64,000 nucleotides of DNA from Bacteriovorax sp. BSW11_IV. GTDB lineage: Bacteria > Bdellovibrionota > Bacteriovoracia > Bacteriovoracales > Bacteriovoracaceae. The position numbers and the translations under genes were made by a program. Positions 5,802 through 57,868 of the stretch are shown here, one piece after another; the stretch's first letter is position 1, and every line of letters begins with the position of its first letter. The notes beneath the pieces are model-generated. The model saw only the letters and a list, made by a program, of their open reading frames with translations. It was not told the DNA's origin and searched no databases. The stretch lies in assembly GCF_000447755.1 (NCBI RefSeq), contig NZ_AUNE01000003.1, positions 1 through 64,000 on the forward strand, in the 5' to 3' direction.

Positions 5802-5827
5802 ACCTCGTGAAAAAGTTGGCACGAGGT
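5802..5827. repeat. 8-bp inverted repeat overlapping a sigma-54 promoter
   Basis: ACCTCGTG at 5802-5809 and CACGAGGT at 5820-5827 are perfect inverted arms separated by 10 nt. The right arm lies inside the -24 element of the promoter at 5817. It could be an operator that blocks RNA polymerase, or a chance consequence of the promoter sequence. No T-run follows, so it is not a good terminator for the RND gene. Confidence 0.5.
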
Positions 5828-5832
5828 TTGCT
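5817..5832 (+). promoter_or_regulatory. Sigma-54 (RpoN) promoter, exact consensus
   Basis: TGGCACGAGGTTTGCT matches the sigma-54 consensus TGGCACG-N4-TTGC(A/T) at every fixed position, with the invariant GG (5818-5819) and GC (5830-5831) 10 nt apart. Transcription should start near 5843. No start codon with a convincing frame follows before the terminator at 5907, so the expected product is a short RNA. A bacterial enhancer-binding protein would be required. Confidence 0.75.
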
Positions 5833-53667: not shown

Positions 53668-56600
53668 ATGAGAAAAGTAATCATCGCAACGATGACATTA
53701 TTCGGTCTATTTAGTGGGATCTTTGCTAGCTCTGAGCAAAGTGTTGAGCTCATCATTCCTAAACCCTATGCTCCAGAAAAAGGTTTTTTTGCAACTGCTA
53801 CGTCAATGTTTCTAGTGGATACTGTTGGTGAGTTTAAAAGTATTGAAAACTCTATTCGCAAAAAGCTTGCTCCTTATGAAGTTGCGCTTGCGAAATATTA
53901 TAGTCAGAAAGATTTGGATAAGCTCATCACTGAAACAATGAGTGCTGTAAATAAAAATATTATCAAAGATGACCTCACTGATCAGAGGGCAATTGCTACG
54001 GCCAGATACCTAGGGCGAGAGCTTATTGGTAAAATATTTGAAAGAGTACTTGAAGTCGAAGGTATAAAAGATGAAAGTGCAAGAAAAGTGTGGAAGGATA
54101 AATTATTAAGTCCTTTTAATCGTTGTATCAACGAGTCTCGTAATTTTCTCTATGATGGCGCGGGTTGTATCGGTAGTTTGACGGCCGCATTGATTCCAAA
54201 TGTTGGCCTGGCCATGACTCACGAAATGTCGAAGTCAAAACTTGCCCCAATACTTCCTGAAGATCAACGTCAGACATTTGTCGAAGGGCGTGTGCGCGAT
54301 TACAGATTGTGCTTTTTAAACAACAGAAAAAAAGATGCAGAGGCCGTAAAGGGCTGTGCTCTTGATTCTATAAAAGTTGGTGTTATCGCTGTAACAAAAA
54401 AGAAGGTAAGTGACACCATTGATGCCACAACAACTGATCCAAAAGTTTATAGCGATATCATGAATAAGAGTATGCCTCCATTTCAAAAATGTATGGGGGA
54501 AATTGGTAGGGGGCTTCCTCGTAATAAGCCTTATGATTATCAAATCAACAGATGTTTAGACGGGGTTGTATCAACAGTGGGACAGGGTTTAATTCCTGTT
54601 AAAATTGGAGAGAATCCAGCGGTTACAAATAATTTAACTTCTGCTCAGATAAGCTTACTCGTTCCTCAGAAAAAAGAAGAGTTCAAAAAATGTATTGATG
54701 AGATGGTTAAAAAAGATCAAAGAGTTGGCGGGTCTATCGATTCTAAAGAATGTGAAACACGTATAACTAATGATGTTACGAAGTCTGTTGTTTTAAGTAT
54801 TTTTGATAGTAATGCTCGTAAAAATCTTGGGCCAATTAATAAAGGACTTGCCGACAGTGTTGCAAAAAAGGCCACTGACCTTCTAGAACAGTGTTGGCAT
54901 CAAAAAATTGCTGGAGAAGAGAAAAATAAGTGTCTCAAAGATTCAATTTCAACTTTATCAATTGATATTGCCAACGAAAAAATTAAGAAAGAGTTACCTA
55001 AAGAAAATGAGCAAACGAAAAAGATAAGAATGGGACTGATGTCCGGCTTTGAAGGATGTTTAGATAAGGGTCTAAGTGGTGATATTGCTTCTGATCCAAA
55101 CTTGAGTTCTAAAGTAACTGGTTGTGCTACAGAGTTAACGAAAAACTCGGCCATGAAAATTGCGGAGTATCAGTTGTCTGAAATTATAGGGGACAAAGTT
55201 TCTGGCCCTGAAAAGGTTCAAATTATAAATAAACATGTCTATCGTGATTTAGAGCATTGTCTTGGAAGTGCACCAACAGAAGAAATTCTTTCTAGTTGTG
55301 TTACGAATTTGAAAAAAAATGCATCACACGATATTGCCATTCTAAGCTTCAGCGCTGAAATTGATAAATTTATTAAAGAAAATGGTGGTAAAGATAGACT
55401 CGGCATCAAAACGTCAGATATTCAAAAATTGAAAAGCCAACTTGAAAGAGACTTGGCATCATGTCTTGAAAAAATTAATGATAAAGACCCAATGCCACAA
55501 ATTAATCAGTGTATTAAAGGACAGGTTTTCAACTTGGCGACGACGCTGGGTGATTATCAATTTAATGCTAGTGTAGGCACATTGTATAAAGGTCGTGAAA
55601 GTGTTCAGCACATATTCCATGAAGAGTTCACAGGAAATTTCAGAGGGTGTTTGAATAGAGCACAAGGCGAAGATTACGATCTCAATGGATATATGGATAA
55701 CTTAAAAACGTGTACCAATGAAGTTTCTTCGAAAACGATGTACTCAATGGGAAGGGATCAAATTCAATTTGCTCTTACGCAAAACTTAAAAGATAAACCT
55801 GGGGTGGACCGCAAACAACAACGAGAGGCCCTTACTCTTTCACTTCTTGCTCCTTACAAAGAATGTCTCGATACAGCGCCTAAAAAAGATACATGTATCT
55901 CGGGTCTAAAAACTGAGGCCACTAAGGCAGTCGTTGAACAATATGCAAAAAATGAGGTTGAATTTCAGCTCAATACAAAAGAGATGCCGAAGAATCTTGG
56001 AACAATTCTGGAAGAATTCAAAAAGTGTATGATCCAAGCAAAGAGTGATCAAAAAGCGCAAGATCGTTGTGTTAAGAATTTTTCTATTAAATTTGCCAGT
56101 GCCCTTGGTAATATGAAAGTTCAGTCTGTACTTAATTCGACACTTGGCTCAGAAGATTTTGCGACAAATAAAAAAGAAATAGATTCAATGCTTAAAGACT
56201 ACGACTATTGTCTTCGTCGATTAAATTCTAAAGAATACGTTAATGAAGTAACTGCTGGAGTTACTGAGTGTATCGGAACTTTACAAAAAACGGCCGAAGG
56301 AATCGTTAAAAAAGTCGCAACGGGATGGATTTCTACAACAAGTCCATTTGCTGATTTTAATAAAGCTATTGCTGCAAGTTTACCTTGTATCGCAGGTCTC
56401 ATGCCTGCATCTCCTTATGATGGAGACTTAAAAAAGCAAGTTGACTCGGCCCTTAAACCTGTTGCGATTATGATTGGTCAGTATCTTGATTACAACATCA
56501 AAGAAGCTGGAGAAGATCTTCCTAAAGTCCTTGAAACTCTATTAAAAGATATCGACGAAGGCGATTCTCTTGAGGCCAGGAGAAACCTTGTGGATACACT

Positions 56601-57174
56601 TGTTGAAACTGGTGCTCTTGATCAAATTATTAAGGCCATTGTGTTGGACAAAGTTAAAGGTGGTTTAAAATCAGTTTCTGATAGTGAGATACCTCAAAGT
56701 GTGAAAGACAAAATTTCTAGTAAGGCCAACTTAGATTCTATTTTTAAAGGAAAAGTTGCTGCTGAAATTAGAGAAATGGTAGCAGAGTCTGTTTTAAGAC
56801 CAGTTCTTGTTGATGGTGAAAAAATGAGTGGACAAAAAGTTAGTGCTGCAACTAAGGAGATCACTCAAAAAGTTACTGAGGCCCTCGCCACGTCAGATAA
56901 GTTTGGGCAAGAAATTATTCGTGTAAGCGTACAAAATAAAATAAATCAAATGGGATCAGTAAAAAGATTTTTTGGAAAAATGATCTACGGGTCTGATTCG
57001 TTCAATTGGTCAAAAGTGCGTGAATCGGATAAGGGAAAAATTGCCGAGGCCTATATTACTCGACATGTTCTAATGCCTAAGCTGCGTGGGGAAGTCATTG
57101 ATGAATCCACTATGGCCAATATCAATAAGAAGGCCGAAGAATTGGTCACTAGCGCTGTAAAGAGTTATGAATAG
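53668..57174 (+). CDS. Secreted protein with twelve Cys-pair helical repeats
   Basis: 1168 aa. Signal peptide to about residue 20 (SGIFAS). From residue about 150 to 880 the same unit recurs twelve times: aromatic-x2-Cys, 10-25 residues, Cys, then a helix; examples are FNRC...GC, YRLC...GC, FQKC...RC, FKKC...EC, YKEC...TC, FKKC...RC and YDYC...EC. The Cys in each unit are well placed for a disulfide across a helical hairpin in the periplasm. The C-terminal 250 residues lack Cys and are helical. No known family. Single gene, own leader. Confidence 0.78.
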   Translation: MRKVIIATMTLFGLFSGIFASSEQSVELIIPKPYAPEKGFFATATSMFLVDTVGEFKSIENSIRKKLAPYEVALAKYYSQKDLDKLITETMSAVNKNIIKDDLTDQRAIATARYLGRELIGKIFERVLEVEGIKDESARKVWKDKLLSPFNRCINESRNFLYDGAGCIGSLTAALIPNVGLAMTHEMSKSKLAPILPEDQRQTFVEGRVRDYRLCFLNNRKKDAEAVKGCALDSIKVGVIAVTKKKVSDTIDATTTDPKVYSDIMNKSMPPFQKCMGEIGRGLPRNKPYDYQINRCLDGVVSTVGQGLIPVKIGENPAVTNNLTSAQISLLVPQKKEEFKKCIDEMVKKDQRVGGSIDSKECETRITNDVTKSVVLSIFDSNARKNLGPINKGLADSVAKKATDLLEQCWHQKIAGEEKNKCLKDSISTLSIDIANEKIKKELPKENEQTKKIRMGLMSGFEGCLDKGLSGDIASDPNLSSKVTGCATELTKNSAMKIAEYQLSEIIGDKVSGPEKVQIINKHVYRDLEHCLGSAPTEEILSSCVTNLKKNASHDIAILSFSAEIDKFIKENGGKDRLGIKTSDIQKLKSQLERDLASCLEKINDKDPMPQINQCIKGQVFNLATTLGDYQFNASVGTLYKGRESVQHIFHEEFTGNFRGCLNRAQGEDYDLNGYMDNLKTCTNEVSSKTMYSMGRDQIQFALTQNLKDKPGVDRKQQREALTLSLLAPYKECLDTAPKKDTCISGLKTEATKAVVEQYAKNEVEFQLNTKEMPKNLGTILEEFKKCMIQAKSDQKAQDRCVKNFSIKFASALGNMKVQSVLNSTLGSEDFATNKKEIDSMLKDYDYCLRRLNSKEYVNEVTAGVTECIGTLQKTAEGIVKKVATGWISTTSPFADFNKAIAASLPCIAGLMPASPYDGDLKKQVDSALKPVAIMIGQYLDYNIKEAGEDLPKVLETLLKDIDEGDSLEARRNLVDTLVETGALDQIIKAIVLDKVKGGLKSVSDSEIPQSVKDKISSKANLDSIFKGKVAAEIREMVAESVLRPVLVDGEKMSGQKVSAATKEITQKVTEALATSDKFGQEIIRVSVQNKINQMGSVKRFFGKMIYGSDSFNWSKVRESDKGKIAEAYITRHVLMPKLRGEVIDESTMANINKKAEELVTSAVKSYE

Positions 57175-57241
57175 TGTCTATATATAGGACACTATTTCGC
57201 TAGATTACCCTGTGTTTTCAACTGTTTAATGTCTTAAGTCT

Positions 57242-57257
57242 TGGCAAGATAATTGCT
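57242..57257 (+). promoter_or_regulatory. Sigma-54 promoter of the secreted CheD-like gene
   Basis: TTGGCAAGATAATTGCT: GG (57243-57244) and GC (57255-57256) separated by 10 nt, with only one mismatch to the TGGCACG-N4-TTGC consensus. Start point near 57268, just 4 nt before the ATG at 57272, giving an almost leaderless message. Confidence 0.65.
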
Positions 57258-57271
57258 TTTAATTGAGTATT

Positions 57272-57868
57272 ATGAAAATGATACTTGTGTTGGGGATATT
57301 GATTAGTTCACTATCTTCATTTGCCAATGATACAGGGAATGAGCCTGAAGTTTTTCAGCGTGAATTCATTTACACTCATCGTAGTGTTCATCCTAATATT
57401 CAAACATATGGGGTTAATACTTGCGTTGCTGTCTACTTATTCAATGGAGATGGTCATGCTATTATCGCTCATTTTGATGCTTCTATTAAAGCTAAGAAAG
57501 AATTATCAAAAATGATTACTCTTTTAGGTGAAGGAACAAAGGCGAAAATTTTTGGTGGAGTTGAGGGAGCAAGATTAAATACATTTGGGGAAATTTTCGA
57601 TTCACTCAAATATTATAACATCCCTGTTGTTGAATTTCGTCAAAATGAAAGAGGTTCAGATAGTATGTCATTAAGTTTCAATCTTGAGACTAATGAAGTT
57701 TCTGAGTACGATGAAATGAATTCATATGATACGTTTGATATCGTTGAGGGAAAGCTTAAGCGTCTTCATATTGGACCTAAAAGAATGTTTCGACATATGG
57801 ATTCTCTTGGTGGCGGTGATATCGTTGAGAAACAAAAAAGTTCGACAGGCTTTAGGCCTATTTTCTAA
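57272..57868 (+). CDS. Exported CheD-like glutamine deamidase
   Basis: 198 aa. Signal peptide cleaved near SSFA-ND (residue 18). The mature protein follows the CheD fold: Thr45-x5-Cys51-VAV and His67 in IIAHF reproduce the Thr, Cys and His of the deamidase site with the CheD spacing (Cys to His one residue shorter), followed by KAKIFGG, a helix and LSFNLETNEVS, matching CheD's YNIETGKL. Chemotactic CheD is cytoplasmic; a signal peptide is unusual. It may act on prey or periplasmic proteins. A TTG at 57263 would precede the predicted transcript start. Confidence 0.72.
   Translation: MKMILVLGILISSLSSFANDTGNEPEVFQREFIYTHRSVHPNIQTYGVNTCVAVYLFNGDGHAIIAHFDASIKAKKELSKMITLLGEGTKAKIFGGVEGARLNTFGEIFDSLKYYNIPVVEFRQNERGSDSMSLSFNLETNEVSEYDEMNSYDTFDIVEGKLKRLHIGPKRMFRHMDSLGGGDIVEKQKSSTGFRPIF

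What the first reader, a model, noticed from the sequence alone, without database searches (positions are those of the whole stretch)
57242..57868. Exported CheD-like deamidase under a sigma-54 promoter
CheD deamidates glutamines of chemoreceptors in the cytoplasm. This protein keeps the Thr, Cys and His of the site with near-identical spacing and several fold-specific segments, but begins with a signal peptide. Secreted deamidases of related folds (BLF1, CNF1) are toxins. In a predator it could modify prey proteins. The promoter predicts a transcript starting only about 4 nt before the ATG.
Basis: partly seen in the sequence, partly recalled or inferred. Interest (0 to 1): 0.78.

Follow-up and report, generated by a model that had tools for sequence, protein, structure and literature searches.

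The report
Exported NTAN1/CheD-type protein amidase
A bacterium of a predatory lineage carries a secreted cousin of two enzymes that work inside cells (human NTAN1 and bacterial CheD, which strip the amide group from asparagine or glutamine in proteins), so this chemistry may also be done outside the cytoplasm, on a target nobody knows yet.

Summary
ORF 57272-57868 (198 aa) has a signal peptide, its only Cys is Cys51, and Thr45/Cys51/His67 match CheD's catalytic triad. The CheD label is only partly right. Two AlphaFold models of the family match human N-terminal asparagine amidohydrolase NTAN1 best (Z 17-18, 161-166 residues), ahead of CheD (Z 13-14, about 125). Cytosolic CheDs from the phylum form a separate, well supported group, and CheD's HxMLP and GG...R motifs are missing. 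The closest relatives are in Halobacteriovoraceae-type genomes; 13 aligned members share an export signal and a C-terminal motif (RHxDSxGGGD). NTAN1's substrate-N-terminus loop (Ser254/Thr255/Glu260) has no aligned counterpart, so Asn specificity is unproven. CheD coexists with it in some genomes, so it does not replace CheD. Its neighbourhood is not conserved, and its patchy presence among likely predators weakens a general prey-toxin role. The sigma-54 site is real for this genome (24 sites versus 1 control, mostly before exported proteins) but absent upstream of the close orthologues, and gives an unusually short 4-nt leader. Most likely it is an exported Cys amidase acting on Asn/Gln side chains; substrate and compartment are unknown.

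The parts
57272..57868 (+). Exported amidase of the CheD/NTAN1 superfamily, 198 aa, ATG start
57272..57325 (+). Signal peptide MKMILVLGILISSLSSFA (residues 1-18), likely cleaved before Asn19
   Evidence: sequence; equivalent, non-conserved N-termini in all 13 members; low pLDDT at 15-20
57404..57406 (+). Thr45, equivalent of CheD Thr21 / NTAN1 Ser69
   Evidence: invariant in 13 members; alignment with CheD
57422..57424 (+). Cys51, predicted nucleophile (CheD Cys27 / NTAN1 Cys75); only Cys in the protein
57470..57472 (+). His67, predicted catalytic His (CheD His44 / NTAN1 His92), in an HxD motif shared with NTAN1 and not with CheD
57791..57820 (+). Family-specific C-terminal motif RHMDSLGGGD (residues 174-183), absent from CheD
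   Evidence: R174, H175 and S178 invariant; G181, G182 and D183 in at least 90% of 13 members
57241..57257 (+). Sigma-54-type promoter TTGGCAAGATAATTGCT; predicted +1 at 57268
   Evidence: rpoN present; not found upstream of Halobacteriovoraceae-group orthologues
57169..57197 (+). Hairpin between the upstream gene and this gene (terminator-like, approximate ends); suggests the gene has its own promoter
   Evidence: -13.7 kcal/mol, z -2.3

Best explanation
The gene encodes a soluble, Sec-exported cysteine amidase: a distinct exported branch of the CheD/NTAN1 superfamily lying on the NTAN1 side of the split from cytosolic CheD. Inferred chemistry: Cys51 attacks the carboxamide of an Asn or Gln side chain, His67 activates the Cys, Thr45 orients the His, and ammonia is released to leave Asp or Glu. 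Inferred selectivity: the part after residue ~150 (helix 155-167 and the RHxDSxGGGD segment) sits where the first half of NTAN1's appended, site-covering region sits, so a chain end or a flexible segment is a likelier substrate than CheD's receptor helices. Inferred place: the periplasm, envelope or, in predators, the prey space. Inferred control: in this genome, a sigma-54-dependent promoter belonging to a set that mainly serves exported proteins. Shown here: fold match, triad conservation, export signal, separation from CheD, promoter statistics. Not shown: activity, substrate, final location.
For: Fold: models of the window protein (pLDDT 84) and of relative L009 (pLDDT 89) match NTAN1 at Z 17.3 / 161 residues / 2.3 A and Z 18.2 / 165 / 2.6 A, CheD at Z 13.7 / 126 / 3.1 A and 13.3 / 125 / 3.1 A, and everything else at Z 8.7 or less. 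Sequence: Pfam NTAN1 model PF14736 matches 9 of the first 11 members, best E 8e-7, and is over its cut-off for L036 and for the G048 member; the family profile finds T. maritima CheD at E 2e-5. Triad invariant, plus equivalents of NTAN1's Gln51 and Thr74 (Gln29, Thr50; roles in PMC7022378). Single Cys in 12 of 13 members. Signal-peptide-like start in 13 of 13. Tree: 10 CheDs separated at 100/99-100 support. CheD and the exported protein coexist in G045 and G046. Sigma-54: 24 sites versus 1; 17 of 17 site-proximal genes have signal-peptide-like starts against 36% of background ORFs, p 3e-8.
Against: No biochemistry is known to me for any member found here. NTAN1's Nt-Asn-reading residues Ser254, Thr255 and Glu260 lie beyond the stretch that aligns in the better model (18-187 to NTAN1 37-230), and Thr73 is not conserved, so the substrate could be different. 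The signal-peptide caller used here is crude (2 of 7 CheDs also pass). The sigma-54 site is not conserved and leaves only 4 nt of leader. NTAN1 is one very long branch in the tree.
Confidence: 0.7

Rival explanations
1. It is an exported NTAN1 in the strict sense (a narrower version of the best explanation): it deamidates N-terminal Asn of peptides or proteins, either the cell's own exported proteins or prey fragments.
For: Closest fold; equivalents of NTAN1 Cys75, His92, Ser69 (as Thr), Gln51 and Thr74, and the HxD motif.
Against: The second half of NTAN1's appended region, with Ser254/Thr255/Glu260 that hold the N-terminal Asn, is outside the aligned part; Thr73 not conserved; no exported N-degron system is known to me.
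Confidence: 0.3
2. It is an exported CheD proper: a deamidase of internal glutamines, acting on surface or prey proteins.
For: Thr45/Cys51/His67 and the surrounding VQTxGVxTCVAL segment resemble CheD; profile E 2e-5 to T. maritima CheD; a few members hit NCBIfam CheD models; L034 just passes Pfam CheD's cut-off.
Against: CheD motifs HxMLP and GG...R are replaced; CheD matches fewer residues and at lower Z than NTAN1; the CheDs group apart; the deamidated sites of chemoreceptors are cytoplasmic (established knowledge), so an exported enzyme cannot reach CheD's known target.
Confidence: 0.15
3. It acts on cell-wall or small-molecule amides (for example amidated peptidoglycan stem peptides), comparable to the fold relative YfiH/PgeF, and serves envelope remodelling.
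For: Same fold class as YfiH/PgeF (Z about 8); exported; the sigma-54 gene set is directed at exported proteins.
Against: YfiH is structurally much further than NTAN1; no conserved neighbouring cell-wall genes.
Confidence: 0.12
4. It is a non-catalytic protein that merely kept the fold.
For: No activity known.
Against: Triad and surrounding residues are invariant over proteins only 28-39% identical to the window protein, and the lone Cys is always retained.
Confidence: 0.05

Closest known systems
Human NTAN1, protein N-terminal asparagine amidohydrolase (PDB 6a0e; Pfam PF14736; PMC7022378)
   Same: alpha-beta-beta sandwich (Z 17-18, 161-166 residues), Cys/His/Ser-or-Thr triad, QRE strand, TC and HxD motifs, first part of the appended C-terminal region
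   Different: Exported; about a third shorter; the 231-310 part with Ser254/Thr255/Glu260 is not matched; has its own RHxDSxGGGD motif; bacterial
Thermotoga maritima CheD, chemoreceptor glutamine deamidase (PDB 2f9z; Pfam PF03975)
   Same: Core fold (Z 13-14, about 125 residues), Thr-x5-Cys and His spacing, GG turn
   Different: CheD is cytosolic, has HxMLP and GG...R motifs and no C-terminal lid; its receptor target is cytoplasmic
YfiH/PgeF (peptidoglycan editing factor)
   Same: Same fold class, Cys/His site
   Different: Z about 8; zinc at the site (PMC7022378); different substrate
BLF1 and CNF1 catalytic domain
   Same: Distant fold relatives with a Cys/His deamidase site; act outside the producing cell
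   Different: Z 5-7 only, no sequence similarity found; glutamine deamidases with other targets
CheD-like proteins of giant viruses (Moumouvirus, Tupanvirus, Fadolivirus; predicted structures)
   Same: Similar predicted fold, Foldseek E 6e-9 to 2e-7
   Different: Uncharacterised; 15-21% identity

Membership tests
NTAN1 (PF14736) | Cys/His/Ser catalytic triad in a CNF1/YfiH-like fold | tested here: met
   (Thr45 in place of Ser69)
NTAN1 (PF14736) | Pfam model match over the curated cut-off | tested here: inconclusive
   Window protein: no match; relatives L036 and the G048 member pass, others fall under
NTAN1 (PF14736) | Residues that bind the N-terminal Asn (Thr73, Thr74, Ser254, Thr255, Glu260) | tested here: not met
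   Thr74 equivalent Thr50 conserved; Thr73 not; the aligned range ends at NTAN1 residue 230 for the better model, so 254-260 have no aligned partner. Residue-level superposition was not available
NTAN1 (PF14736) | Deamidates N-terminal Asn | not testable with these tools
   Needs a peptide assay
CheD (PF03975) | Thr/Cys/His triad with CheD spacing | tested here: met
CheD (PF03975) | CheD signature motifs HxMLP and GG...R | tested here: not met
   HxD instead of HxMLP, and no GG...R loop; only L034 keeps a GG there
CheD (PF03975) | Pfam model match over the cut-off | tested here: not met
   No match in the window's genome even at E 10; only L034 of the family reaches it
CheD (PF03975) | Groups with known CheDs in a tree | tested here: not met
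   Ten CheDs separate at 100/99-100
Exported protein (Sec signal peptide) | Positively charged start, hydrophobic core, small-x-small cut site | tested here: met
   All 13 members; crude caller, no SignalP on hand
Sigma-54 promoter | GG and GC at -24/-12 in a TTGGCA-N6-TTGC context, in a genome with rpoN | tested here: met
Sigma-54 promoter | Conserved at orthologues | tested here: not met
   none of the same-family orthologues has one within 200 bp (the distant, G+C-rich L034 has a weak match, not counted)
Secreted deamidase toxin (BLF1, CNF1) | Close structural or sequence relationship | tested here: inconclusive
   Fold relation only, Z 5-7, no sequence match

The most novel reading that the evidence does not exclude
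Some predatory bacteria secrete a protein asparagine/glutamine amidase that edits proteins or peptides of the prey, or of their own envelope, outside the cytoplasm, under a sigma-54 programme that switches on exported proteins. This would be a protein-deamidation step outside the cytoplasm, in a lineage distinct from CheD.
Probability: 0.25. Interest if true: 0.75.

Novelty: new variant of a known kind. Interest (0 to 1): 0.52.

Why it matters
NTAN1 and CheD are both known as enzymes of the cell interior. An exported branch with the same catalytic site would show this deamidation chemistry being used outside the cytoplasm, and it bridges NTAN1 and CheD in sequence: the NTAN1 structure paper found no sequence similarity to known proteins in prokaryotes (PMC7022378), whereas this family matches both models. 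If it acts during predation it gives a simple, testable modification of prey proteins.

Tried and rejected
Single-sequence searches of Pfam, NCBIfam and PDB with the window protein gave nothing. An operon partner: none conserved; neighbours are shared only within pairs of close genomes. A phage origin: no viral contig encodes a relative, no PHROG match. Replacement of a lost CheD: the window's genome has 23 chemoreceptor matches and no CheD, but other genomes hold both CheD and the exported protein. An N-terminal Asn as self-substrate (the predicted mature window protein starts with Asn19): not conserved in relatives. A shared GTGTTTAAA-like upstream motif: seen in only four relatives and not in the window. 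L034 has a sigma-54-like CTGGCGCGTGGCTTGCT 29 nt before its assumed ATG, but in a G+C-rich record with an uncertain start, so not counted. AU test of exported-family monophyly against NTAN1 falling inside it: not rejected, p 0.10. Papers: none held both Halobacteriovorax and deamidase, and two predator papers do not mention deamidases or CheD.

Full report
Observation. The ORF is as described: ATG 57272, stop 57868, 198 aa. It starts MKMILVLGILISSLSSFA-ND, a normal-looking Sec signal peptide. The possible catalytic residues are Thr45, Cys51 and His67. The window protein alone gives no Pfam or NCBIfam match and no meaningful PDB sequence match.

Family. Searching 129 genomes of the class gave ten clear relatives, all in the same family-level group, and a profile search of 369 genomes of the phylum added four more distant ones (L033-L036) and two marginal matches. 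Named records place several members in Halobacteriovorax/Bacteriovorax and Halobacteriovoraceae, and one in a groundwater deltaproteobacterium. The alignment of 13 members keeps Pro25, Glu26, Gln29, Arg30, Glu31, Gln44, Thr45, Gly47, Thr50, Cys51, Ala66, His67, Asp69, Gly95, Gly96, Leu138, Lys161, Arg164, Arg171, Arg174, His175 and Ser178. Twelve of 13 have exactly one Cys after the signal peptide, Cys51. All 13 begin with a hydrophobic, non-conserved leader.

CheD or NTAN1? The profile finds T. maritima CheD in the PDB at E 2e-5 and human NTAN1 at 0.1, while the Pfam NTAN1 model matches 9 of the first 11 members, best E 8e-7, and exceeds its cut-off for L036 and for the G048 member; L034 matches both families. 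By structure the answer is clearer. The window model aligns with NTAN1 at Z 17.3, 161 residues, 2.3 A, and with CheD at Z 13.7, 126 residues, 3.1 A. A second model, of relative L009 (pLDDT 89), gives Z 18.0-18.2 for four NTAN1 entries over model residues 18-187, and 13.3 for CheD. YfiH/PgeF follow at about 8, BLF1 at 6-6.7, CNF1 at about 5. In a joint alignment with nine CheDs from the phylum, the T. maritima CheD core and human NTAN1 (typed in from memory and confirmed identical to 6a0e over residues 1-310), the exported proteins share HxD, TC and QRE with NTAN1 and lack CheD's HxMLP and GG...R. Trees put the CheDs together at 100/99-100 support, with the exported proteins and NTAN1 on the other side. 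NTAN1 is a long branch and its exact place is unsure.

Working of the enzyme. [quoted passage not shown] The triad, Thr74 and Gln51 have invariant equivalents here; Thr73 does not. In the better model the alignment stops near NTAN1 residue 230, so the 254-260 loop has no aligned partner; the conserved RHxDSxGGGD segment may do a similar job, but this is a guess. I therefore claim an Asn/Gln side-chain amidase with a partly covered site, not a proven N-terminal asparagine amidase.

Biology. The gene stands alone: its neighbours are conserved only between close pairs of genomes, a hairpin separates it from the upstream gene, and no second copy exists in the genome. The window's genome has 23 chemoreceptor matches and no CheD; G045 and G046 have both a CheD and the exported protein, so the exported one is not a substitute. 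No published mention was found.

Promoter. TTGGCAAGATAATTGCT at 57241-57257 fits the sigma-54 consensus with one deviation. The exact pattern TTGGCAN6TTGCW occurs 24 times in the genome against 1 for the reversed control, rpoN is present, and the window holds 2 sites against 0.11 expected. Together with two CTGGCA sites, 17 sites lie within 60 nt of an ATG-started ORF, and all 17 products have signal-peptide-like starts against 36% of 190 background ORFs (p 3e-8, crude caller). So the site fits a genome-wide pattern, in line with the published view of sigma-54 as a controller of the bacterial exterior (PMC3162934). Yet the distance from predicted start to ATG is 4 nt where the others have 14-39, and none of the same-family orthologues has such a site. 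The promoter is probable, lineage-specific and unproven.

Verdict. A real, exported, uncharacterised branch of a known superfamily, closer to NTAN1 than to CheD. The toxin reading is possible but unsupported.

Noticed in passing
G000 genome; loci L055-L078, L110, L111: Sigma-54-type sites in this genome (24 versus 1 control) lie almost only upstream of genes for exported proteins or lipoproteins (17 of 17 with a nearby ATG-ORF). Most relatives in the same family group show similar counts (12-29 versus 0-3), while two genomes elsewhere in the phylum show 2-9. This looks like a sigma-54 secretome regulon.
   Followed up: partly
window 53668-57174: Upstream exported protein of 1168 aa has 25 Cys, 24 of them in 12 regular pairs (C-x9-21-C) with a period of about 63 residues; weakly like DUF445; absent from the same spot in the sister genome G002.
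   Followed up: partly
window 5816-5832 and locus L071: Two sigma-54-type sites of nearly identical sequence (TTGGCACGAGGWTTGCTTATA) have no ATG-started ORF close downstream; possible small RNAs or misread short genes.
   Followed up: no
window genome G000: 23 chemoreceptor matches but no CheD; CheD is scattered through the phylum (94 of 369 genomes), often in frames of about 520 aa, which suggests fusions.
   Followed up: no
locus L034, 1489-2160: A more distant exported relative (phylum search) that just passes Pfam's CheD cut-off and nearly NTAN1's, with CheD's GG loop and this family's PEVxQRE and RHxDS motifs: a link between the two families.
   Followed up: partly
viral structure library (no window coordinates): Giant viruses (Moumouvirus, Tupanvirus, Fadolivirus, ChoanoV1) encode predicted proteins of the same fold, one annotated as CheD.
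   Followed up: no
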